NCBI RefSeq assembly: GCF_034372165.1
Contig: NZ_CP139698.1
Span: 1,364,001-1,428,000, forward strand
Origin: Christiangramia sp. OXR-203
GTDB lineage: Bacteria > Bacteroidota > Bacteroidia > Flavobacteriales > Flavobacteriaceae
Length of the DNA: 64,000 nt
Reading direction: 5' to 3'
Shown: one piece after another, positions 51,374 through 64,000 of the stretch
How the letters are laid out: each line of letters starts with the position of its first letter
Numbering within the stretch: position 1 is the first letter of the stretch
Made by a program: the position numbers and the translations under genes
Notes under the pieces: generated by a model
Told to the model about the DNA's origin: nothing
The model's input: only the letters and a program-made list of their open reading frames with translations
Database searches by the model: none

Positions 51374-54300
51374 ATGAATACCATCACAGCCGATCAAATC
51401 AACCAGTTGGATTCCTCTCAATTGCCGTATCTATTATTGAAATTATTATACAATGAGCATCTAAGATATCACTTCCCCAATGTCTATATAAGCGTTCCGG
51501 AGAATATCAACAGAGCAGACGGTGGTGAAGATGGTCGATTGCAAACAAGCGATTCAAAAAACTCTCAGTGGATTAAAAACACTGACACCTTATTTCAGAG
51601 TAAGGCTGCAAAAATGCAGGTTAGCAAATGTCATGATGAAGTTCTGACCAAAAAGAAAGTCCTTAAACCCCGGGTTCGCGAAATTTTAGATAAAAAAGGG
51701 ACTTATCTTCTCTTTACTAATGATTTACTAGTCCCAAATGACATCATCCCAAGAATAGCGGCTTTACGAAACGGGATCAAACAGGGGAAACTAAATGAAG
51801 GGTTATCGGAGGAGAATGCTGGTAATTATGCTGAGGAAGCAAAGCTGGAAATAATGGATGCCAATCTAATTCGAGACTGGACTAATCAATATATTACAGC
51901 GGTATCTTATGTCCAAAGATGTACACATCAAACTAAGCCTTTAGGTCTATTTACTTATGAAGAATTAAATTCATATCCTCATGAGGAGTTCAAATCCAAC
52001 GATGACATTAATAAAATTATTAAGGAAGTACGTAAAATAATATATGAAGGGCAGCATGTGCGTATTGAAGGAGTATCAGGAATCGGTAAAACCCGATTGA
52101 TCAATGAGGTATTCAATCCAGGTGAATTGAAAAATGAATCTTTTGACTTAATTCGAAAAGCCATTTCCGAACAAATGGTCTATTTTAATATTTCCGAAAA
52201 TGCCAATGAAGTTTTAAATTATGTGAGGAGTCATGCTCAAGATCTTCAGGCTATTCTAGTCCTTGATAATTGCCCTCCTGATTTGCATATTAAATTTCAG
52301 GCGGAATGTGATCGTTATAATAGTCAACTAAAGATAGTTTCTTTGGATTTCGATCAACTTGCTCCGCGATATTCTAATACGGTTGCCATTTTTGAATTAA
52401 AAGATGAATTTTATAAGTCAATCACCGAACAGATCTTAACAGAAAAATATCATGGCGTACTTACCGATGCGGCTATTCGGTATCTTATCGATTTCTCAGA
52501 GGGAAATACGAAAATGGCCATTGATTTTGCCAACGCTACAATCAAGGATCAGAATCTTCATGAAATGGTCGATAATGATTTGATCAAAAAACTACTTTTT
52601 GGTCGCAATGATATAGTTGAAGAGGAATTCAGGATTTTAAAAATTTTAGCCATTTTTAAAGTGTTTGAATACCCAGGAATTGAATTATATGAGATAGATC
52701 GATCTCGGTATGATCAGTTACTGGAAGGGGTTGAATTTATATCAACTTTCTTCAAAATATCCAGAGAACATATTGAAAAAACAATCAAAAAATTTTTATT
52801 ACGCGGGAATATTGAGCGTAGAGGAAATAAAATTATGGTCAGACCCAATGCATTAGCTTTGAAACTGGCGATTATTTTTTGGGAAGAAACTAGTCTTTCG
52901 GGAGGAGAAAATTTTATAAATTCTATCCCAAAATCCTATCAAGTTCCAATCGCAGAGCAGTTACAAAATTTGAAAGGAGCACAACATGCCAAAACTTTAG
53001 TAGGTCAATTATGGGGTTTTGATGGAAATTTTTCAACCGCGGAACTTTTAAATTCTAGAACGGGTTCACATCTTTTCCGCTCGGTTGTTATTGTGAACCC
53101 AGAAGCGACTACTGAGACCCTGGTTAAACATTATCTGAATAAGTCTAAGAATGACCTAAAGGGGGTGAAAGAAGGTCGTCAAAACCTGATTTGGGCCCTG
53201 GAGAGACTTTGTTTCAGAAAGGCTGTGTTTTATGATGCTACAAGAGTATTGATGTCTTTTGCGGTTTCAGAGAATGAATTCTTCTATAGCAACAATGCGA
53301 CGAGTTATTTCAAACAACTTTTCAGCTTTCAGTTGGCCGGAACGGAAGTAGCTTATGTCGATCGTATTCCAGTACTAAAATGGGCCTTAGATAAAAAAGA
53401 TTTTGACTTTGATAAATTAACACTAGAAACATGTGCTTCGGTACTCAATAAAACCATATACCATCGAATGATAGGAGCGGAGCATGAAGGGGGAGCAACG
53501 CCTTTAAAGGATTATGAACCAAAGACTATGGCGGAAGTGTATACCTATGTTGACGAGTTGTTGGAAATCTTAAAATGCTTTTTAGATTCTTCCAGTCAAG
53601 AATTACGACAAATCAGCCAGAAAGCTCTTGTCGGTTGTTTAAATGACTTGGATCGGTTAGGTTATGATGTTACCCAGTTAGGATCCTGCCTAAAAAAAAT
53701 TGTTAATAACCCTATTGAGAAAAAAGAGGTCTTAGGCTCTTTAAATATTAGTCTAAATTCTCCGCATTCTTCAGACAAGTTAAAAGCATTGGTTGTAGAA
53801 TTTATCGATTCGCTTGCCCCACAAAGTATTCCTGAAAAAATTGCGCAGATCGTTTCCGATCCTTATGTATACAATCGAGGAGAGGATCACGTGGAGCATA
53901 AAATAAAAACAATTAATTTAGCGAGGGAGATTCATGAAGATAGAATCTCGCTTGTTCCCTATGTGAAAAATTTAATGATAGGAACCCAATATCAGGGGTT
54001 AGAGTTTGGAGAATCCTATGGAGATATTCACGGATATGACCAGAAATTGCTAGACGCTATCCAGGATTTTCTGATGGATGTGGAAATTACGGCCTCTTGG
54101 AATACAGCCTTTTTAACGGGGTATTTGAATAACTTGCAAAAGTCTGAGGTACAAAAGGTTTTTAATCGATTTGTTGATCAGAAATCAGCTTTCGCTTTTG
54201 TGATTTTTCAAACGATGTCTCCGATACTTACCAACGCCAAAAAACTTTTAGATTTAATCGATGAAGGCGCAGATCCGGAGATGTATCGATTTGCCCGTCG

Positions 54301-55165
54301 TGAGCTTGCTAAATTGCCCCTCGATGAACTTGTCGAATACTTTCAAAACATGGAGGAACGTGATGAGTCCACAAAAGCACAAATTATTAAAATTGTTTAT
54401 TGGTATATCAAGGATCATCAGAGGGAGGAATTAATGCAGGAAACCGAACTGGTAGAATATTTAAAAGGTTTTGTCAGACGCTCCAACCTGCTTGAGTTAG
54501 TATTAAATTCGAAGTTTACAGAATTTTATGAGTGGGAAGAATTAATGATATATCTTTTAACGGTGGATAGAACTACAGCAACTTTTGTGGCTCTCAATAT
54601 CACCGAGACTTATAAAAATCGGGGAATAACCCAAAAGAGCGGTTATCATATCGCTAATGTAGCCAATAGTTCCTTAGTAGCTAACTGGGATGCTGCATGG
54701 CCTGTATATGGGGATCTGTTGATTAAAGAGGGGGAGGCTCTATTTTTTTCGGAGATTTTTGACATGAACTGGGTGACAGGAATTGAAAATTCCCATCCTT
54801 TTTTCAAGAATAAGAAACAGCGTAAAAAACTCGAAATATGGCTCCTTGACAATCCTCGAGCAGCAAAATGGATGATTCGCTATTTACCATTATATGGTGA
54901 CGCTAATGGCTGGTTTTCATTGACAAGAAACCTTATAGATACTTTTGGAGAGGATCCTGATTTTTTGAATACTCTATCTAATAATTTACATTCTATGATG
55001 ACCGCTGGTTCTCGCATACCCTATTTAAAATCGAGAATACGCATTCTTAAGGAACTAAAAGATCATGATTTTGAAAATATTCGATCTTGGGTTACAAGGG
55101 AAATTGAACATTTTGAAAAGGAAGTTAAAATGGAAAAAATTCGGGATGAAGAAACTGGACTATAA
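51374..55165 (+). CDS. STAND NTPase with N-terminal PD-(D/E)XK-like nuclease (Avs-like)
   Basis: A 1263-residue protein. Residues 48-80 hold ADGGEDGRL then LFQSKAAK, the D...QxK order of PD-(D/E)XK nucleases used as effectors in Avs and related systems. A P-loop domain follows with GVSGIGKTRLINEVF (Walker A, about 234) and ILVLDNCPP (Walker B, about 293), the STAND form of AAA+ switch. The remaining 850 residues are helical repeats, the usual sensor of phage proteins. Family knowledge: target binding oligomerises such proteins and activates the nuclease. It has its own promoter. The exact Avs class cannot be fixed by eye. Confidence 0.78.
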   Translation: MNTITADQINQLDSSQLPYLLLKLLYNEHLRYHFPNVYISVPENINRADGGEDGRLQTSDSKNSQWIKNTDTLFQSKAAKMQVSKCHDEVLTKKKVLKPRVREILDKKGTYLLFTNDLLVPNDIIPRIAALRNGIKQGKLNEGLSEENAGNYAEEAKLEIMDANLIRDWTNQYITAVSYVQRCTHQTKPLGLFTYEELNSYPHEEFKSNDDINKIIKEVRKIIYEGQHVRIEGVSGIGKTRLINEVFNPGELKNESFDLIRKAISEQMVYFNISENANEVLNYVRSHAQDLQAILVLDNCPPDLHIKFQAECDRYNSQLKIVSLDFDQLAPRYSNTVAIFELKDEFYKSITEQILTEKYHGVLTDAAIRYLIDFSEGNTKMAIDFANATIKDQNLHEMVDNDLIKKLLFGRNDIVEEEFRILKILAIFKVFEYPGIELYEIDRSRYDQLLEGVEFISTFFKISREHIEKTIKKFLLRGNIERRGNKIMVRPNALALKLAIIFWEETSLSGGENFINSIPKSYQVPIAEQLQNLKGAQHAKTLVGQLWGFDGNFSTAELLNSRTGSHLFRSVVIVNPEATTETLVKHYLNKSKNDLKGVKEGRQNLIWALERLCFRKAVFYDATRVLMSFAVSENEFFYSNNATSYFKQLFSFQLAGTEVAYVDRIPVLKWALDKKDFDFDKLTLETCASVLNKTIYHRMIGAEHEGGATPLKDYEPKTMAEVYTYVDELLEILKCFLDSSSQELRQISQKALVGCLNDLDRLGYDVTQLGSCLKKIVNNPIEKKEVLGSLNISLNSPHSSDKLKALVVEFIDSLAPQSIPEKIAQIVSDPYVYNRGEDHVEHKIKTINLAREIHEDRISLVPYVKNLMIGTQYQGLEFGESYGDIHGYDQKLLDAIQDFLMDVEITASWNTAFLTGYLNNLQKSEVQKVFNRFVDQKSAFAFVIFQTMSPILTNAKKLLDLIDEGADPEMYRFARRELAKLPLDELVEYFQNMEERDESTKAQIIKIVYWYIKDHQREELMQETELVEYLKGFVRRSNLLELVLNSKFTEFYEWEELMIYLLTVDRTTATFVALNITETYKNRGITQKSGYHIANVANSSLVANWDAAWPVYGDLLIKEGEALFFSEIFDMNWVTGIENSHPFFKNKKQRKKLEIWLLDNPRAAKWMIRYLPLYGDANGWFSLTRNLIDTFGEDPDFLNTLSNNLHSMMTAGSRIPYLKSRIRILKELKDHDFENIRSWVTREIEHFEKEVKMEKIRDEETGL

Positions 55166-55324
55166 TTTCTGACATACCTTTCAAGATCAAATCATTACCA
55201 GCTATATGGTGAAAATTATAAATGGATTTCCATAACAGTGCAATTCTAATTTATTTCCGGGAGCTAAAAAACCAGGTGATAGATTTTCATTATTAAAATC
55301 TTTACAATGTGTTCTTAACATCAA

Positions 55325-55912
55325 TCAATGAGTTTTAAATCTGTTGTAATAATGCAATTTTAACTGTACTGCGGTATATACTTCAAACAGGTAGAGTTCT
55401 GTTGAGCCTTTAATAGGTAGCAGCGAGACCTGACATTCTTCTCTTAATATTTTTTTGAAAGGTCCTGAAAACTTATCAAAGTCAAGTTCTTTTCTGGTGC
55501 CTGAGTGCTCAATACCTTCTATTTCATTGTGAAATTCTTTACCCATTGTATAACTTAAAGAAGATGAGAAATGATTTGATCCCTTTATATGTTGATGAAT
55601 ACGTTTTACAACACCACGTGAAATACCTGTGTAAAATGGCTCATCATTTAGCCAAAACAAATAAATCCCTTTGAAATCTTCATCTTGCTTTAATTGAGGA
55701 ATTAAGGTTTTTAAGAATTTTCGAGATGTCGCATTCCCAACTCCTTCTTTGCCGAAGTTTTCATAAATACTTATAACTCTTGACTTGTCAGTAAGCTTAG
55801 CCAGCATTGGAGAGAAATTTTCTGTTATTTCATCAAATCCCCGAGTTTCATCAGGTAAGAAATTTGATGGCCAGTGATCTTTTAGTTTTATTTTTGCACT
55901 TTTACTCTCCAT
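55325..55912 (-). CDS. GIY-YIG nuclease-like protein
   Basis: The 195-residue protein contains GIYLFWLNDEPFYTGISRGVV, the GIY...YxG core of GIY-YIG nucleases, with an arginine in the following helix (VKRIHQHI) and a later acidic residue as expected. Upstream and downstream parts are unassigned. Its ATG directly follows the stop of the DUF4365-TPR gene, so it is the last gene of the restriction-modification operon and may be a second cutting subunit. Function here is inferred. Confidence 0.75.
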   Translation of the reverse strand: MESKSAKIKLKDHWPSNFLPDETRGFDEITENFSPMLAKLTDKSRVISIYENFGKEGVGNATSRKFLKTLIPQLKQDEDFKGIYLFWLNDEPFYTGISRGVVKRIHQHIKGSNHFSSSLSYTMGKEFHNEIEGIEHSGTRKELDFDKFSGPFKKILREECQVSLLPIKGSTELYLFEVYTAVQLKLHYYNRFKTH

Positions 55913-57832
55913 CTATTTAGATAACTTGATTATTTTTGGTTTTTCTCCATCCCAGAATCTCATTTCAAATGGATATTCTTTAGGATCCCGAATAATATTT
56001 TCTACCATAGAGATAAATTCTTCTCCTTTAAAGTCTTTGTAATCTTCTAAATTAATAAGACGATCTAAAGCTTTCAAAAAGTCATTGCGACAGTAGAAAA
56101 ATCCTGTATTTACTATATCGTATAGGAGATTTTTTTCCATTTCTTCATACGTGCATAAAATACTAACAAATGCCCAAATTGTTGAATTGTTTTTAATAAG
56201 AATCGCTTGAAAAAGAATGCTTAAAAAATAGCCTTGTGGATTAACATTCTTTAAATAATATTCTGTCATCAAATACCAAGCTGTTGGATAAATAGCATCT
56301 AAAAATAATACTTCGAAGATTTTGTCGAACTGCCTTAGTTCACTTTCAATTAATCCTGTAAGCTTCTCATTTGCTGCAAATTCTTTTCGTTCTTGATGTT
56401 CAATACCGATAACATTTATTAAGAAGTGTAGTAACGTGAACTTAATATTAAATTCATATTTATCGTGTTTTTTGTCTTCAGCAAGACTATCATTTGCCGT
56501 GAGAAATTTGTCAAAATATTCAAAAGCTAATTTATAATCCCCAGAATACATCAACGCATCTCCGTAAGTGCCTAAAAGAAAAATATTTTCTTTTTCTAAT
56601 GGTATAGCTTCCTTGTATAACGATGCGCTACATTTATACCTCCTAATTTGAAATAATAAACCAGCTAATTCCCTTTTAAAATAAAAACGATCCAAATAAG
56701 AACTATCTGTTTTGATAGCTTTATTATAGTAATGGAGAGCTTTGTCCAAAATGTAATGGGATTTATAATAACTACCATAATTATAATATGCCGTACTTAA
56801 AAAGCTTTGATTATTATGCTTTATACAAAGTAAAATTAATCTGTTGTAAAATTCTTCAATCTTTGGTCTGTCTATAAAATTATTATTGCCTAAAAAGACA
56901 ATTGCTTGTAAAAAGCTTTGATTTATCAAATCATCTGACAAATAAATCGAATCAATTATTTTGGGTAGAAAAATATTGTCGGTATCACAAGCTATTAATT
57001 CGGGTAGGATATATGTTAGAATTGGACTGTGCATTAAAAAACTATCCAATAAATTGTATTCACTTATTAGTTGTTTTAAATCTTTCCGTTTTCCGGTATT
57101 AGCTAAAAAAAGAACTAAGGCTTTATGCAAAACATCTAAAAGAAAATCTTCATCAATATTTTCTAATTTTTCATCCCAGCCTATCGAACTACCAAAAGCT
57201 GATTTTAAATTTAAAACCAATTGTCCTTCTAACAGATTTATTTCAAGAGATGCTTTTGATTTGTCCCTTGATAAATTTATCAATAAATGCCTCTCTCCAA
57301 TCGCAGCGGATAGAATTCTTTTAAACTTGATAGGTCCAGAAAGGTGATTTATAAAACCTACTACAGGAAAGCTAAATGATTTACTGGTGTAATGAGATAA
57401 AGTTTCTAAATCATGATGAATTTTATCTGAACTATCAGTATTCCAGCACTGTGCATCATTAAATTTTAAAGTATAGGATTTATTCTTTGAGTTGGATGAT
57501 AAGAATGCATAACGTTTAATCCAGTCAAAGTAGTATTGGTTGTCATCAGCGTTATATCTGAATATAGCTACTGGTAAATCATAATTAGCCAGTTGCCTGA
57601 TCTTTTTGATAGGCATATTAATTGACTTTTTTGCTGATATTGATTTACTGTCTGTTGCTTTTAATTGTATCCAAAAAACTAATCCTGTAGGTTGTTCATT
57701 ATCATCAAATATCTCCACCTCAATATCAATACCGTAATCTTTTCCCTTCTCCCTTATTACCCATTGATCTGGAAAGATATTTCTTAATTGGTGAACACTT
57801 TTCTCTTCTAAAATATGGGTTTTGCTTCTCAT
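55913..57832 (-). CDS. DUF4365-TPR protein
   Basis: The N-terminal part carries REKGKDYGIDIEVEIFDDN and VFWIQLKATDS, the D...E...QLK pattern of DUF4365, a PD-(D/E)XK-related fold. The C-terminal 400 residues are tetratricopeptide repeats (for example SFLSTAYYNYGSYYKSHYIL, LALLGTY-like helices and YKLAFEYFDKFL). The gene starts right after the stop of the methylase gene and ends right at the next, all with no spacing. It could be an effector or sensor that works with the type IIG enzyme. No known homologue role is claimed. Confidence 0.72.
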   Translation of the reverse strand: MRSKTHILEEKSVHQLRNIFPDQWVIREKGKDYGIDIEVEIFDDNEQPTGLVFWIQLKATDSKSISAKKSINMPIKKIRQLANYDLPVAIFRYNADDNQYYFDWIKRYAFLSSNSKNKSYTLKFNDAQCWNTDSSDKIHHDLETLSHYTSKSFSFPVVGFINHLSGPIKFKRILSAAIGERHLLINLSRDKSKASLEINLLEGQLVLNLKSAFGSSIGWDEKLENIDEDFLLDVLHKALVLFLANTGKRKDLKQLISEYNLLDSFLMHSPILTYILPELIACDTDNIFLPKIIDSIYLSDDLINQSFLQAIVFLGNNNFIDRPKIEEFYNRLILLCIKHNNQSFLSTAYYNYGSYYKSHYILDKALHYYNKAIKTDSSYLDRFYFKRELAGLLFQIRRYKCSASLYKEAIPLEKENIFLLGTYGDALMYSGDYKLAFEYFDKFLTANDSLAEDKKHDKYEFNIKFTLLHFLINVIGIEHQERKEFAANEKLTGLIESELRQFDKIFEVLFLDAIYPTAWYLMTEYYLKNVNPQGYFLSILFQAILIKNNSTIWAFVSILCTYEEMEKNLLYDIVNTGFFYCRNDFLKALDRLINLEDYKDFKGEEFISMVENIIRDPKEYPFEMRFWDGEKPKIIKLSK

Positions 57833-60800
57833 TCAACTATTTTCAACAATTACAATTTCTTCATCTGAAAGCCCATATAGCTCATAAACTTTTGAGTCAA
57901 TCTCTTTTTCTATTTGAGCTATTTGTTTCTGAAGGTCTAAAGCTTTTCTCTTGTTTTCTTCAAAAAGTTCCATCCATTCAAATTCATCTTTTTTGTTAAG
58001 CGTAGCAATAGGTTCGAGATTGTCCTTTACTCTTAATTTATTGGTGGCTTTTATTGCTTTGTTAAGTTCTTCCATGAAAGTTGCAAAATCTAAATCATAC
58101 CAACTTTCTAGTTTGCGTTGAAGTCTGTGAAATTGTAGAGTACCTTTAATATAATTCTGAAATCTATGATCTAAATTTTGAAGATCATTCACGTCCTTTA
58201 TTATCTTACCTGTTGCATTATTAAAGTATTCTTCATTTTGAAATTCTGGTATAGGTATTTGCTCGAAATATTGTGGCTTTACCTCAATATATCCACCGCT
58301 TCTAACAACACAGATGGATTTAAGAAACTCCCAAACTATTTTAGAATTAAGCACACATAATAGGGTTCTATTGTCAGAAGGAAGAAATACCGCAGGTGCA
58401 TTAACGTAAGTTCCTTCGGTATCTAAACAAAATTTATTTGAATTTTGGAGGTTAGGAAAGATGATCTTGGGTTGCTCGAATAATTCATAATAAGCACAAT
58501 TCCTCAATTCCCACCAATAATCGCCTTGATCATAACGTTTTTTAGCACGTTCCATAAAAGGCATCAAATGTGAAAATATTTCGGCATTATCAGTTGATAC
58601 CCCTTTTAACCTTTCGTCTTCGGTTTCTAAGTTTGAATATTCTTCGTTAGTCGATTTACTTTCAAATAAAATTAGGTTTTGTGTAGCATCTTGAGTTTTC
58701 CATTTTTTTATCTCTTTTCCTTCAAAAATCGGTTTGATATGTTCTTCATTGTTGAAATCATCTTGTACAATAAACGCATCATTCAGTCCTGTAATTAAAC
58801 CCCGATATGATTTTCCAAATCTTTCTTTAATAGTATTTAGAGTAGATAATTTTTTGAATAATTTGGATTTTTCAACAGATAAAAAAGACCAAGAATTGGG
58901 TTCAAGGGTTTCTTGTAACACACTTATACTATCGTGTACTTCAATATTAATAACGTTGCTTTGTGATGATTTGGGGATTTTTATGTATTTGAATTTATTG
59001 TTATTTGGATCATATTTATCAAGGATTATTATTACCGGATAGGTGGTTGCTCCATCAAATATTTGTACTTCTGTAAAATCTATATATTCTTTAAACCGTG
59101 TTTCGTTATTCAAATAATCTCGCAATACTTTACCAGCAGTTGTCTTGTCAAATGTATTAGATATATAACCCATCAAACCTTTCTCATTAATAAGGTTTGA
59201 CCCCAACTCGTAGAAGTAGGCGAATAAATCGCTTGAGGGATGAAATACTTTATAGTTCTTTTCAAAATAGCTGATAAAATCCGTCAAAAGCTCTGCACGC
59301 ACGTAGGGTGGATTCCCAATCACCACATCAAAACCACCATCGGCAAAGACCTCGGGAAATTCATTTTCCCATTTAAATGCTTTATGACCAGCCATATTTT
59401 TACTATCAATAAGGCTATTGCCACATTTGATATTGCTGCTTAAATCATTTAATTTTCTTCGTGGTTGTGCGGTACGTAGCCAAAGCGAGAGTTTGGCGAT
59501 CTCTACACTTTCCTGATTAAGGTCAACGCCATAAATATTCTTTTCTAAGATGGTGTTTTCAATATCTGGAAACTGCAAACCACCACCTAGAATTTTGGTT
59601 TTCAACTCATCAATATAGTTATGTTCTTTAATTAGGAAATCAAGTGCCTGGTTTAAAAATGCTCCAGAACCGCAAGCGGGATCACAAATTGTCAACTGCA
59701 AAAGCCAATCACGATAGCTGTCCAGAGTTTCCAAAAGCTGTTTTTTGGTATTTTGATGTGTGCCTTTTTTGACTTCAAAATAATCTGCCTCTTTAAAACC
59801 TAGCTCTATCTTCTTTTCCTCACAAAGTTTGCCAACAGTATTTTCTACGATGTATTTGGTAATATACTTTGGTGTGTAAAAAACTCCATCTTTTTTGCGC
59901 TTACTGGTCTGTTTGTCAAATTCACCGCCTTCAATCTCTGCGTTTACACTTTCAATTTCGTTAAGGGAGTTCTCAAAAATATGTCCTAGGATATTTACAT
60001 CTACTTGGCTTTCAAAATCATAATTGGACAATTTGATGGTGTATTTGTACAATAAATCATTATCAATTTCAAGGGCATCTAGTATAGTATCGGGTTTAAA
60101 CAAGCCGCCATTATAAGCGTAAATTTCTGCGCGTTTTTGTGTTCCTATGCGCCCAATGTCCAGAAAATTAAAATATTGCTTAAAAAGGCCATATAAAGGG
60201 CGTTCATCGCCAAAATCCCAATCGTCCTTCCATTTGTTTAATATTTGAAGTGTAGAATTAGAGGGTAGTAGCATTCTGTCTTCTGCAAAAAAGATAAACA
60301 GGAAGCGGTCTATAAGTTTTTGGGACTTTTGAAAAAGAGTGAGCTTTACATTCTTTTCAAGACGCTGAATATCCTCTAGATCATCTGTACGCTCGGTTTC
60401 ACTTAATTTTGCCTTTACAGTTTTTGCATTATTCCGTACCAGGTCTCTATAGATTTCACGCTTAAATATGGAATAATCTTTGTAAAATGCCTTTGTAATT
60501 TCTTCTTCTTCTGCAATAGATGCTTCCTTAATTTTAAGTGGTACATTATTATGTACTTTATTAATATGTAAGCATAGATAGAGCAGGGCAAACCGGCTTT
60601 TCGAAAGCGTAAACAAATCGAATTCTTCAAATTCGGTTGCATCATTGATATAAAAACGTAGCTTTTCAAAGTTTGAGGTTATTACATACACACAACCTTT
60701 TTGATTGGCTTTATAATCAAAGGCTTGACGACGGATGCTCTCTAAATCCTTTGTGTTAGTGCCTTTTAATTCAATAACACCTATTGCCACATCATCCTTC

Positions 60801-61075
60801 AAAATAGCACCGTCCGCTTTTCGTGCGTTTCTTTCGTTTTTGAACTCGGTTGTTAAATTTGAGTTGGGATTTGGAAATAGGGTATAACCTAAAATATTAA
60901 CGAACAACTCATTTAGAAAAGTTGCTTGGTATTGTTCCTCTTTAGCACTTTTTATATTTTCTTGAATAGTTGTGTTCCAGAAGTATTTTTGATATTTCTT
61001 ATATGCTTTGTCAACTATTTTTTCATCAAGCAAAGCGAGATGTGATTTTAGAACTGATGCTTGGAATAATGCCAT
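57833..61075 (-). CDS. Type IIG (Eco57I-like) restriction-modification enzyme
   Basis: A 1080-residue fusion. The N-terminal nuclease is seen in TEFKNERNARKADGAIL and VAIGVIELKGTN (D...ExK). The methyltransferase has motif I, DPACGSGAFLNQALDFL (about 464), and motif IV, VVIGNPPYVRAE (about 588), the NPPY of N6-adenine methylases; a target-recognition domain and coiled-coil end follow (LQKQIAQIEKEIDSKVYELYG). One protein thus reads, methylates and cuts DNA. The downstream DUF4365-TPR and GIY-YIG genes are joined to it with no spacing. Confidence 0.9.
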   Translation of the reverse strand: MALFQASVLKSHLALLDEKIVDKAYKKYQKYFWNTTIQENIKSAKEEQYQATFLNELFVNILGYTLFPNPNSNLTTEFKNERNARKADGAILKDDVAIGVIELKGTNTKDLESIRRQAFDYKANQKGCVYVITSNFEKLRFYINDATEFEEFDLFTLSKSRFALLYLCLHINKVHNNVPLKIKEASIAEEEEITKAFYKDYSIFKREIYRDLVRNNAKTVKAKLSETERTDDLEDIQRLEKNVKLTLFQKSQKLIDRFLFIFFAEDRMLLPSNSTLQILNKWKDDWDFGDERPLYGLFKQYFNFLDIGRIGTQKRAEIYAYNGGLFKPDTILDALEIDNDLLYKYTIKLSNYDFESQVDVNILGHIFENSLNEIESVNAEIEGGEFDKQTSKRKKDGVFYTPKYITKYIVENTVGKLCEEKKIELGFKEADYFEVKKGTHQNTKKQLLETLDSYRDWLLQLTICDPACGSGAFLNQALDFLIKEHNYIDELKTKILGGGLQFPDIENTILEKNIYGVDLNQESVEIAKLSLWLRTAQPRRKLNDLSSNIKCGNSLIDSKNMAGHKAFKWENEFPEVFADGGFDVVIGNPPYVRAELLTDFISYFEKNYKVFHPSSDLFAYFYELGSNLINEKGLMGYISNTFDKTTAGKVLRDYLNNETRFKEYIDFTEVQIFDGATTYPVIIILDKYDPNNNKFKYIKIPKSSQSNVINIEVHDSISVLQETLEPNSWSFLSVEKSKLFKKLSTLNTIKERFGKSYRGLITGLNDAFIVQDDFNNEEHIKPIFEGKEIKKWKTQDATQNLILFESKSTNEEYSNLETEDERLKGVSTDNAEIFSHLMPFMERAKKRYDQGDYWWELRNCAYYELFEQPKIIFPNLQNSNKFCLDTEGTYVNAPAVFLPSDNRTLLCVLNSKIVWEFLKSICVVRSGGYIEVKPQYFEQIPIPEFQNEEYFNNATGKIIKDVNDLQNLDHRFQNYIKGTLQFHRLQRKLESWYDLDFATFMEELNKAIKATNKLRVKDNLEPIATLNKKDEFEWMELFEENKRKALDLQKQIAQIEKEIDSKVYELYGLSDEEIVIVENS

Positions 61076-61996: not shown

Positions 61997-62779
61997 ATGT
62001 CAATTGATTATCATGAATTACTATCAACAGGGTACCCTTGTGCTTTCGAAAAAATTCATGCCAGGTATAGCCATATGGTTTTCTGGCTTGGGAAAGGAAT
62101 TATCAGCGATGATTTCGTGGTAGAATCTTTAGTGCAGGATACCTTTTTAAAGTTATGGGCCAACCGGGCTAAGATTAAATCAGAAAAACATCTCTTTTTC
62201 TTTTTAAGAATGGTGATGAAACGGGAATGTTATACCTATTATACTAGTCCTAAGCATAAGTTTTTTAGAAAAATTAATGCTTTAGAAAGTTATGAAAACT
62301 ATCAGGATTACTTAGCCGGCTATGATCCAAAAGATGATGTTCAAGTCCGACAAGAACAAGAAGCTCAACAGGAAGCCTTTGAACAAATTACAAAAGTTTT
62401 ACCGCTACTAAAACCAGAAAGAAAACGCCTGATAGAACTTTGTTTAAAATACGGATTTAAGTATAAATCTATTGCCAGGGTCATGGGTACCAGCATAACC
62501 GATATCAGTAACGAGGTGAAGAGGGCTATTGAAGATATTAAAGTAATCATCAAACAGGGAAGTCAACTTGAAACAATATCTAAACCTACTAAAGCTATCA
62601 AAGGCCAGGAAATGTCCGAAGAGCAGGAAAAGGTTTTGGAATTACGCCTGATACAAAAGTTTTCCTTTTCTGCCATTGCTGATGAGCTTAAGCTTTCCCA
62701 GGAAGAAGTTCATAAGGAATTTATAGCCGCATATAAGTATATGCAGGTGAAACGTGAGGAACAATTAGAATCGGCTTAA
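61997..62779 (+). CDS. ECF-like sigma factor with a second C-terminal HTH, partner of dead Cas12f
   Basis: A 260-residue sigma-70-family protein. Sigma-2 spans about 15-82 (FEKIHARYSHMVFWLGKG, VVESLVQDTFLKLWANRA), the core-polymerase and -10 contact. Sigma-4 spans about 124-187 (LLKPERKRLIELCLKYGFKY, KSIARVMGTSITDISNEV). Unlike ordinary ECF factors a second helix-turn-helix (206-250, EEQEKVLELRLIQKFSFSAI, then ADELKLSQEEVHKEF) follows. The dCas12f start comes one base after the stop (TAAGATG), so the two are translationally coupled. No anti-sigma gene is adjacent. I infer recruitment by dCas12f rather than by a -35 motif. Confidence 0.85.
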   Translation: MSIDYHELLSTGYPCAFEKIHARYSHMVFWLGKGIISDDFVVESLVQDTFLKLWANRAKIKSEKHLFFFLRMVMKRECYTYYTSPKHKFFRKINALESYENYQDYLAGYDPKDDVQVRQEQEAQQEAFEQITKVLPLLKPERKRLIELCLKYGFKYKSIARVMGTSITDISNEVKRAIEDIKVIIKQGSQLETISKPTKAIKGQEMSEEQEKVLELRLIQKFSFSAIADELKLSQEEVHKEFIAAYKYMQVKREEQLESA

Positions 62780-62780
62780 G

Positions 62781-63878
62781 ATGGAAAAGACAACGATGAA
62801 ACTCACTCGAAAGATACAGCTACTCGTGGATCTACCGACGAAAGAGGAGAGGAGGGAAGCACTGGACAAACTATACCAGTGGCAGAACCGTAGTTTTAAA
62901 GCCGCTAATCTTATCGTGTCACATTTATATGTGCAGGAGATGATCCAAGAGTTCTTTTATTTATCCGATAGGGTGAAGTATAAACTGGCAGACGAGAAAA
63001 AAGATGAAGATGGCATTTTGAATCGTTCCCGGATGAATTCTACCTACCGTGTGATATCTGATCGGTACAAAGGAGAGATCCCTACCAATATATTAGGTAA
63101 CCTAAATAAAGCTTTAATTAGCACTTTCAATAAAAATAAGCAGAAGTACTGGAAAGGTGAAGCTTCATTGATGAATTTCAAAAGAGATCTGGCTTTTCCG
63201 TTTGATATGGAAGGCATTAGAGGATTAACCTATAACGAAGAGAAAAAAGCATTCTGTTTTCGTTTATTTTCAATCCCTATGAAAACCTACTTAGGAAAAG
63301 ATTACACAGATAAACGTAGACTGCTAGAGCGGTTAGTAGCAGGCGAAACTAAGCTCTGTGCCTCGCAGATTCAACTGAAAGATAATAAGACCTATTTACT
63401 GGCGGTCTTTGAAATTGAAAAGGAAAAGCATCCTCTAAAACCTGAAGTTATAGCCCAGGCTTCTTTATCCCTTGAACACCCTATTGTAGTTAAAACAGGT
63501 AAGGTAAAACTTAGCATTGGTAGTAGGGACGAATTTTTATATCGAAGGTTAGCAATTCAGGCGGCACGAAAAAGGGCAGAGGTAGGAGCTACTTTTTCCA
63601 GATCAGGACAAGGAAGTAAGAGAAAAACAAAAGCAGTACAAAGATTCCATGAAAAGGAAAAGAATTATGTAAGTAATCGCCTCCACGTATATAGCCGGAA
63701 ATTGATAGATTTCTGTGTGAAACACCAGGCAGGAACACTAATTTTAATAAACCAGGAAGATAAGATAGGCATTGCCAAAGAGGAGGAATTTGTCCTTAGA
63801 AATTGGAGTTATTATGAGCTGACCACTAAAATAAAATACAAGGCAGAAAAAGCCGGCATTGAACTTATTATAGATTAA
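62781..63878 (+). CDS. Nuclease-dead Cas12f homologue (dCas12f), TnpB superfamily
   Basis: The 365-residue protein resembles Cas12f from start to near the end: RKIQLLVDLPTKEE, AANLIVSHLYVQEMIQEFFY, STYRVISDRYKGEIPTNIL, KKAFCFRLFSIPMKTYLGKD and the closing RNWSYYELTTKIKYKAEKAG. Where RuvC-I should read GIDLG it has ASLSLEHPIVV (about 227-237), so the aspartate is lost. Where RuvC-II should read a hydrophobic run plus ED it has TLILINQEDKIGI (319-331), with isoleucine at the expected glutamate place. The protein ends at Asp365, before the zinc ribbon and RuvC-III aspartate. It therefore should bind guide RNA and DNA but not cut. No transposase is beside it. Confidence 0.9.
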   Translation: MEKTTMKLTRKIQLLVDLPTKEERREALDKLYQWQNRSFKAANLIVSHLYVQEMIQEFFYLSDRVKYKLADEKKDEDGILNRSRMNSTYRVISDRYKGEIPTNILGNLNKALISTFNKNKQKYWKGEASLMNFKRDLAFPFDMEGIRGLTYNEEKKAFCFRLFSIPMKTYLGKDYTDKRRLLERLVAGETKLCASQIQLKDNKTYLLAVFEIEKEKHPLKPEVIAQASLSLEHPIVVKTGKVKLSIGSRDEFLYRRLAIQAARKRAEVGATFSRSGQGSKRKTKAVQRFHEKEKNYVSNRLHVYSRKLIDFCVKHQAGTLILINQEDKIGIAKEEEFVLRNWSYYELTTKIKYKAEKAGIELIID

Positions 63879-63884
63879 GTTTTT

Positions 63885-63980
63885 GGTTTTGAGGGTGCTT
63901 GTACACCCGTAAGGTGAGGTTTGTTATAACACTCACTAAATGCGAATAGCATATACAACGGCGTGGGCTTTCTTATTTTT
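63885..63980 (+). ncRNA. Candidate guide RNA of dCas12f
   Basis: Just after the stop at 63878 lie three plausible hairpins: GGGTG-CTTGTA-CACCC (63893-63908), GTGAGGTT...AACACTCAC with one bulged A (63914-63936), and ATGC-GAATA-GCAT (63940-63952). Then comes ATACAAC (63953-63959), much like the CAAC 3' end of Cas12f repeats, followed by a unique stretch that starts GGCGTGGGCTTTCTTA (63960-63975) and a T-run. I take the part up to 63959 as scaffold and what follows as guide of unknown length. The 3' end may lie beyond the window. Confidence 0.6.
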
Positions 63981-64000
63981 TTTGGTCATAGTATATGGGA

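What the first reader, a model, noticed from the sequence alone, without database searches (positions are those of the whole stretch)
61997..64000. Sigma factor, nuclease-dead Cas12f and downstream guide RNA form an RNA-guided transcription system
Seen: a sigma-70-family gene whose stop is one base from the start of a Cas12f homologue without RuvC active-site residues, and a structured noncoding stretch right after it. Known: TnpB/Cas12f proteins bind a guide RNA and DNA; dead TnpB relatives (TldR) act as RNA-guided repressors; I recall 2025 work describing sigma-E plus dCas12f pairs in Bacteroidota that start transcription at a guide-chosen site without normal promoter motifs (not checked here). 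Inferred: this operon is such a system and activates a target operon, perhaps a SusC/SusD-type one, elsewhere.
Basis: partly seen in the sequence, partly recalled or inferred. Interest (0 to 1): 0.97.

Follow-up and report, generated by a model that had tools for sequence, protein, structure and literature searches.

The report
RNA-guided sigma factor bypasses an attenuator
This bacterium carries a sigma-factor gene, a nuclease-dead Cas12f gene and a guide-RNA gene whose guide closely matches only one other place in the genome, within a predicted folded RNA leader ahead of a nutrient-uptake operon, so the three likely work together to switch that operon on.

Summary
An ECF sigma gene (61997-62779) and a 365-aa RuvC-dead Cas12f (62781-63878) lie one base apart, followed by a three-hairpin guide RNA (scaffold 63891-63959, guide from 63960). 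The machine is known: the Cas12f is 74% identical to that of PDB 9n9c/9n9m/9n9o/9n9q, and the sigma factor matches 'RpoE' in 9n9q. New here: that site is the switching strand of a covarying, apparently bistable leader RNA without an Rfam 15 match (antiterminator versus terminator plus T-run, behind a TAnnTTTG box). In relatives, guides hit the same strand or sites downstream of the terminator; 27 of 51 dCas12f loci also carry this leader before their own sigma gene (not this window). It also occurs in genomes without dCas12f. Inferred: a transcript started downstream of the R-loop lacks the terminator's 5' arm, so RNA-guided initiation bypasses the attenuator. Transcription, termination and activation are untested.

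The parts
61997..62779 (+). ECF-type sigma factor, 260 aa, with a second region-4-like stretch at the C-terminus (about residues 205-250)
   Evidence: matches 9n9q_C 'RpoE' over residues 6-260 at 297.6 bits
62781..63878 (+). nuclease-dead, C-terminally short Cas12f (dCas12f), 365 aa
   Evidence: 74.0% identical (270/365) to the Allomuricauda taeanensis protein of L010, which is identical over 364 residues to PDB 9n9c_A
63891..63959 (+). guide-RNA scaffold, three hairpins, ending ...GCATATACAAC
   Evidence: alignment of 57 scaffolds, covariation, the only R2 hit in this genome, E 3.7e-19
63960..63979 (+). guide segment GGCGTGGGCTTTCTTATTTT (true 3' end unknown)
   Evidence: variable part right after the conserved scaffold; its one other match at up to 3 mismatches in the genome is G000:C1:1955496-1955515, outside the window

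Best explanation
The window encodes a sigma factor, a nuclease-dead Cas12f and a guide RNA homologous to a solved dCas12f-RpoE system; the guide matches one site 0.53 Mb away, ahead of a susC-susD-M16 peptidase operon, and the complex is predicted to bind there, inside a predicted bistable leader RNA, and would start transcription downstream of the R-loop so that the message lacks the leader's terminator. Shown: the genes, their homology, the guide scaffold, the single guide match (17 of 20) preceded by G and in sense with the operon, and a leader whose two alternative folds both covary. Inferred: that dCas12f, guide and sigma assemble and recruit RNA polymerase (from the homologous solved complex and recalled work), that the leader is transcribed from its TAnnTTTG box, that the strand-2:strand-3 hairpin with its T-run terminates transcription, and that a start beyond strand 2 escapes that terminator. 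In about half of the related loci the same leader also precedes the sigma-dCas12f operon, which would give auto- or cross-activation; no such copy was found in this genome.
For: Known machine. One dCas12f, one gRNA and one leader found in this genome, and the guide's only other match within 3 mismatches of 20 is in that leader (reversed-pattern control 0). In 35 relatives' genomes the guide-like pattern gives 78 sites in 34 of 35 genomes against 2 with the reversed pattern; of these 26 are guide genes, 22 lie before SusC, 17 before sigma-dCas12f operons, 13 elsewhere or at contig ends. Leader helices against swapped partners in 82 unique elements: P1 -11.3 against -4.1 kcal/mol, P2, strand1:strand2 and strand2:strand3 all 0/5000; in the 37 not found by the guide pattern 0, 0, 19 and 0 of 5000; the variable P3 helix 0/2000. 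TAnnTTTG box within 80 nt of the leader's start in 76 of 90. T-rich tail (at least 6 T in 8) in 79 of 82. Guides against same-genome SusC-type leaders: at least 14/17 matches for 28 of 92 guides in sense, 0 of 92 antisense. Allomuricauda guides match sites 259-289 bp downstream of strand 2 in 9 of 9 leaders checked, each preceded by G. The base before matched sites is G in 59 of 64. 9 of 9 dCas12f-positive genomes in a 199-genome family survey have the leader, against 28 of 190 others.
Against: No expression, binding or start-site data. The guide has 3 mismatches in 20 to its site (positions 11, 12, 19). Guide-to-leader fit within the element is not specific to the genome: permuted guide sets fitted as well in 364 of 2000, because guides share one consensus. 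In 10 of 33 genomes no leader matched a same-genome guide at 13/17 or better within the element, and 48 of 92 guides stay below 13/17 over the whole SusC-type leaders scanned. Leaders occur without dCas12f. The antiterminator-like fold is the more stable in 82 of 82, though segments of different length were compared, so the terminator may form only under some condition; a simple terminator scan misses it, its loop being longer than that scan allows. The helix swap tests do not correct for kinship. R1 was trained on sites found with the guide pattern, this genome's site included, so searches are not independent, and only the best first-look candidates were scored in each genome (for example 150 of 655, 16 per genome), so absences are not proven.
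Confidence: 0.66

Rival explanations
1. Plain RNA-guided activation as in the known system: dCas12f-sigma starts transcription upstream of susC, and the fact that the site lies in a leader RNA has no bearing on termination; the leader is simply the most conserved stretch upstream of susC and so a stable target.
For: The protein homologues are solved together. Allomuricauda guides hit a site outside the hairpins, 259-289 bp downstream of strand 2, and guides AAAGCCTTCCC match 84-85 bp before susC at 13/17, so the hairpin is not required.
Against: Most of the leaders that match a same-genome guide do so on the switching strand itself, and in the region scanned (from 60 nt before strand 2 to susC) no match of 13/17 or better starts upstream of the terminator's 5' arm.
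Confidence: 0.2
2. Roadblock or repressor: dCas12f bound on the leader blocks polymerase coming from the TAnnTTTG promoter (TldR-like), the sigma factor serving another purpose.
For: The guide site lies within the putative transcribed leader, downstream of the promoter box.
Against: A sigma gene stands in conserved order in the operon and its homologue is solved in one entry with the dCas12f homologue; sites downstream of the terminator and close to susC are placed as for initiation.
Confidence: 0.07
3. The guide RNA acts on RNA: its guide copies strand 2 and pairs in trans with strand 1 or 3 of the nascent leader, changing termination without DNA binding.
For: The guide nearly equals strand 2 of the leader, so it can pair with strand 3.
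Against: Guides of Allomuricauda and the AAAGCCTTCCC class match sites outside the switch; a G precedes 59 of 64 matched sites, which suits DNA recognition.
Confidence: 0.05
4. Ordinary transposon TnpB or a CRISPR-Cas12f nuclease with a chance sigma neighbour.
For: Homology to TnpB/Cas12f.
Against: RuvC residues and the C-terminal part are missing, one scaffold copy found in the genome and so no array, sigma-dCas12f order seen in relatives, homologues solved together.
Confidence: 0.01

Closest known systems
dCas12f-sigmaE RNA-guided transcription system (PDB 9n9c, 9n9m, 9n9o, 9n9q; the dCas12f chain is identical over 364 residues to the Allomuricauda taeanensis locus L010; the system's name and reported function are recalled)
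   Same: Gene order, protein length (365 aa), 74% identity, 'RpoE' partner, downstream guide RNA with the same scaffold, guide match upstream of a SusCD operon
   Different: This guide matches the switching strand of the leader hairpin; the A. taeanensis guide matches a site downstream of the terminator in the SusC leader found in that genome (L214). This locus lacks the leader in front of its own sigma gene, L010 has it.
TldR (TnpB-derived RNA-guided regulators; start of the abstract of PMC13418256 seen in a search listing)
   Same: TnpB-lineage protein using a guide RNA to control transcription
   Different: Here a sigma factor is part of the operon and activation is predicted; whether the locus is prophage-borne was not examined
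Transcription attenuators and riboswitches with mutually exclusive hairpins (general class, recalled)
   Same: Three strands with antiterminator and terminator pairings, T-run, promoter box upstream
   Different: No Rfam family matches; ligand or trigger unknown; overlapped by a predicted RNA-guided promoter

Membership tests
dCas12f-sigmaE RNA-guided transcription system | ECF sigma gene directly upstream of dCas12f | tested here: met
   same order in the 17 relatives' loci
dCas12f-sigmaE RNA-guided transcription system | Cas12f homologue lacking RuvC catalytic residues | tested here: met
   Asp column is Ser228, Glu column Ile323, C-terminal part absent, by alignment to 9nzo; which columns are catalytic is recalled
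dCas12f-sigmaE RNA-guided transcription system | Sequence homology of both proteins to the solved complex | tested here: met
   9n9c_A 620.5 bits; 9n9q_C 297.6 bits
dCas12f-sigmaE RNA-guided transcription system | Structured guide RNA downstream with a 3' guide | tested here: met
   RNA expression not tested
dCas12f-sigmaE RNA-guided transcription system | Guide matches a genomic site with a 5'-G TAM (recalled) upstream of and in sense with a gene | tested here: met
   imperfect match, 17 of 20
dCas12f-sigmaE RNA-guided transcription system | gRNA-dependent DNA binding, RNAP recruitment, start site set by distance from the R-loop (recalled) | not testable with these tools
   needs RIP-seq, ChIP-seq, 5'-end RNA-seq
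TldR repressor | Stand-alone dead TnpB acting as a repressor (recalled) | tested here: not met
   a sigma gene is part of the operon; repression itself was not tested
CRISPR-Cas12f | CRISPR array and active nuclease | tested here: not met
   one scaffold found in the genome; catalytic residues missing
Transcription attenuator (leader at the target) | Two mutually exclusive conserved pairings | tested here: met
   both beat swapped partners in 82 elements, 0/5000 each
Transcription attenuator (leader at the target) | Condition-dependent termination | not testable with these tools
   needs in vitro transcription or RNA-seq

The most novel reading that the evidence does not exclude
RNA-guided terminator bypass: Flavobacteriaceae carry an undescribed bistable leader RNA (no Rfam 15 match) ahead of susCD-peptidase operons, and dCas12f-sigma systems have evolved guides copying its switching strand, so that polymerase is started inside the attenuator, past the terminator's 5' arm. 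The same leader sits before 27 of 51 sigma-dCas12f loci, so one guide would fire both the nutrient operon and other dCas12f operons, an RNA-guided feed-forward cascade.
Probability: 0.4. Interest if true: 0.9.

Novelty: new variant of a known kind. Interest (0 to 1): 0.75.

Why it matters
The sigma-dCas12f machine is known; what this adds is a predicted native target for it in a one-contig genome and the logic of the target choice. If the bypass is right, it links two regulatory layers, RNA-guided initiation and leader-RNA attenuation, and explains where guides sit. The leader itself would be a new regulatory RNA class ahead of SusCD uptake operons, present also where dCas12f was not found, so its trigger is an open question with a clear test.

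Tried and rejected
Rfam at the gRNA and at the leader: nothing relevant. Literature: the recalled 2025 dCas12f-sigmaE papers were not found in the held library, so their start-site distance and their account of targets could not be checked; a search for a described SusC leader attenuator showed nothing to the point in the 20 of 57 papers listed. A permutation of guide sets between genomes was not significant (observed mean 13.45, permuted 13.20, 364 of 2000 as high) because guides share a consensus; I rely on sense against antisense instead, where 'SusC-type leader' means leader up to the first ORF of at least 600 aa (or a long ORF cut by the contig end), chosen by length. The promoter/terminator scanner does not call the leader terminator. 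L101 matches the pattern but lacks the leader; it was dropped as chance. One search's automatic labels were corrected by hand: L139 and L143 are targets, L129 is a degenerate guide. Rows dropped: duplicates L114 and L143 from alignment A1 (A1 keeps the half elements L117, L118); from the helix and promoter tests the half elements L117, L118, L235, L245, L246, L248 and the weak or odd hits L241-L244, L247; 90 elements became 82 after removing duplicates. L104 and L105 end at contig ends, so their downstream gene is not confirmed. The thought that the element is a protein-binding DNA palindrome is disfavoured by the covarying nested helices and the T-run.

Full report
OBSERVATION. The sigma ORF (61997-62779, 260 aa) and the Cas12f-like ORF (62781-63878, 365 aa) are as described, one base apart. 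The sigma protein hits ECF models and has region-4-like matches twice, the second in a C-terminal extension (about residues 205-250). The second protein is a Cas12f: 6.7e-186 to PDB 9n9c_A 'Nuclease-deactivated Cas12f', 1.8e-41 to Cas12f 9nzo. Aligned to 9nzo, the Asp of the first RuvC motif is Ser228, the Glu column is Ile323, and about 92 C-terminal residues of 9nzo have no counterpart; that these columns are the catalytic ones is recalled. The sigma protein matches 9n9q_C 'RpoE' over residues 6-260. The dCas12f of Allomuricauda taeanensis (L010) is identical over 364 residues to the PDB chain; the window's protein is 74.0% identical to it (270/365) and its sigma 52.5%.

GUIDE RNA. 52 related loci came from genome contigs; two (L053, L054) matched over short stretches only and were left aside. 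Scanning the other 50 and the window's locus, 51 in all, a regular expression built from their downstream sequences found 93 scaffolds in 50 of the 51, the miss being L040 at a contig end. Up to six stand in a row, each with its own guide (L043). In an alignment of 57 of the 92 unique scaffolds, 17 pairs in three helices have 97.9% of cells paired and 8 pairs with two-sided change, 0/500 shuffles as high, slid controls far lower. The window's scaffold is 63891-63959 and its guide starts at 63960; a covariance model R2 finds no other scaffold in this genome (140 of 653 first-look candidates scored), and no second dCas12f was found.

TARGET. The window is G000:C1:1364001-1428000 of a 3,395,452-base contig. 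With up to 3 mismatches in 20 nt, the guide has one match besides itself, G000:C1:1955496-1955515, with 3 mismatches (positions 11, 12, 19); the reversed pattern gives none. With the preceding G and a looser 16-nt pattern at up to 2 mismatches there are six places (reversed pattern: 1), the target being the only perfect one and the guide gene itself one of the others. The site lies in sense, about 0.55 kb upstream of a 993-aa SusC (TonB plug and barrel), a 467-aa SusD and a 938-aa M16 peptidase. That a 5'-G is the target-adjacent motif of this system is recalled.

THE SITE IS A LEADER RNA. In 35 relatives' genomes the guide-like pattern gives 78 places in 34 of 35, against 2 for the reversed pattern. 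All 78 were fetched. 26 are guide genes; of the 52 others 22 lie before SusC (usually about 0.5 kb), 17 before a sigma-dCas12f operon (usually about 0.2 kb, once 1.9 kb), 13 are other or cut by contig ends, one of these (L101) without the leader (labels partly set by hand). The flanks are conserved well beyond the guide. Fifty unique elements, this genome's and two half elements included, were aligned. Fold 1 nests P1, P2 (CTGGTA/TACCAG), P3 (variable) and strand1:strand2; fold 2 pairs strand 2 (GGCGTGGGCTnnCTTAT, the guide sequence) with strand 3 (ATAAGTTGAGTTCCACGCC) followed by a T-run. In 82 unique elements each helix is better with its own partner than with swapped partners, 0/5000: P1 -11.3 against -4.1 kcal/mol, P2 -8.2/-7.2, strand1:strand2 -15.5/-14.8, strand2:strand3 -23.6/-21.8. 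In the 45 found through the guide pattern the counts are 0, 0, 13 and 0 of 5000, in the 37 others 0, 0, 19 and 0. P3 in 39 unique pairs: mean helix score 6.78 against 4.32 (sd 0.19), 0/2000. These tests do not correct for kinship. 79 of 82 have at least 6 T in 8 after strand 3; fold 1 is the more stable in 82 of 82, on segments of different length. A TAnnTTTG box lies within 80 nt of the leader's start in 76 of 90, where mononucleotide shuffles give about one per 10-nt bin over all 90; this is the -7 box of the housekeeping sigma factor in Bacteroidota (passages read in PMC9723704 and PMC7366714). Rfam 15 has no matching family.

HOW WIDESPREAD. A covariance model R1 of the leader (trained on these 50, this genome's included) finds one copy in this genome, E 1e-26, at the guide site, and 100 in 32 of 35 dCas12f-locus genomes; only part of the first-look candidates were scored, so these are lower bounds. 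The 49 not seen before were fetched. In 199 genomes drawn from the family, 37 have the leader and 9 have dCas12f (E 1e-60 or better); all 9 have the leader, against 28 of 190 without dCas12f (Fisher 1.1e-7, not corrected for kinship or for training on some of them). Eight leaders of that survey became loci; of the 5 from genomes without dCas12f, 4 are followed by SusC within the stretch. So the leader looks like a regulatory element in its own right.

GUIDES AND LEADERS. For 97 leaders, the best same-genome guide matches at least 13 of 17 nt in 64, with G before the site in 59 of 64; mismatches concentrate at guide positions 10-13 and 15-17. Ten of 33 genomes have no such match in the element. 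Permuting guide sets among genomes does equally well in 364 of 2000, so matching within the element is not genome-specific. Against the leaders from 60 nt before strand 2 to the first long ORF (SusC in most), 92 of the 117 recovered guides could be tested: at least 14/17 in 28 in sense and 0 antisense, at least 13/17 in 44 and 5. Some divergent cases fit too: G001 guide GGCGTGTCATCCCAC with leader GGCGTGTCATCCGAC (16/17); others do not (for example G019, G030, G031). Allomuricauda guides (TTGTGGGATAYACGC), which miss the switching strand, match sites 259-289 bp downstream of strand 2 in 9 of 9 such leaders (4-7 mismatches in 20, each preceded by G); in 5 sigma leaders the best matches have 7-8 mismatches at other places. 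A further class, AAAGCCTTCCC, matches 84-85 bp before SusC at 13/17 in two leaders of G001. Within the region scanned no match of 13/17 or better starts upstream of the terminator's 5' arm.

MECHANISM. From the homologous solved complex and recalled reports, dCas12f-guide-sigma recruits polymerase and starts transcription downstream of the R-loop. Whatever the exact spacing, a transcript starting beyond strand 2 cannot form the strand2:strand3 hairpin, and one starting at the other two site classes begins past it. So RNA-guided initiation would bypass the attenuator. This is inference; no transcript data exist here.

NETWORK. 27 of 51 dCas12f loci have the leader upstream of their own sigma gene, typically 0.2-0.3 kb; the window's does not, and some loci are cut short by contig ends. 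In Salegentibacter sp. 24 (G001) the guide of L003 matches the leaders of other dCas12f operons at 16/17 (L142, L144), which suggests cross-activation.

NOVELTY. The machine is a new member of the known dCas12f-sigma kind; the coupling to a bistable leader was not found in the held library by the searches. The original papers are not held, so they may already list these targets.

Noticed in passing
L245, L246, L248 (left halves) and L117, L118, L235 (right halves), Flavivirga algicola: Leader hairpins are split at the apex loop by a repeated insertion about 1.3 kb from contig ends; its end reads by eye like an IS110-family transposase (recalled motif), so an insertion sequence seems to aim at this hairpin.
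   Followed up: partly
L046, L047, L048 (two Christiangramia genomes, Gillisia mitskevichiae): dCas12f remnants lacking the first 127 residues and with a frame change near residue 339, no sigma gene found in the loci, yet the guide RNA downstream looks intact and its first 20 guide bases equal the window's.
   Followed up: partly
L036, L042, L043, L044: Three to six guide RNAs in a row behind one dCas12f, each with a different guide, mostly beginning GCGTG or GGCGTG: an array-like arrangement without CRISPR.
   Followed up: partly
L154, L158 (Sinomicrobium): The leader precedes a distant sigma-like gene, then other ORFs and a SusC gene, i.e. a different operon layout.
   Followed up: no
window 51374-61075: Defence-type neighbours: a protein partly matching PD-Lambda-4_A (51374-55165), a DUF4365 protein (55913-57832) and a type IIG restriction-modification enzyme (57833-61075).
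   Followed up: partly
L057 2-4722: The target leader lies beside a divergent type I restriction-modification cluster (methylase, specificity subunit) and a large protein that by eye has a P-loop motif.
   Followed up: no
L028 and L133, Psychroflexus tropicus (G019): Its guides GCGTGGGTTTTTCTTAT match the one leader found there at no more than 11/17; where they aim is unexplained.
   Followed up: no
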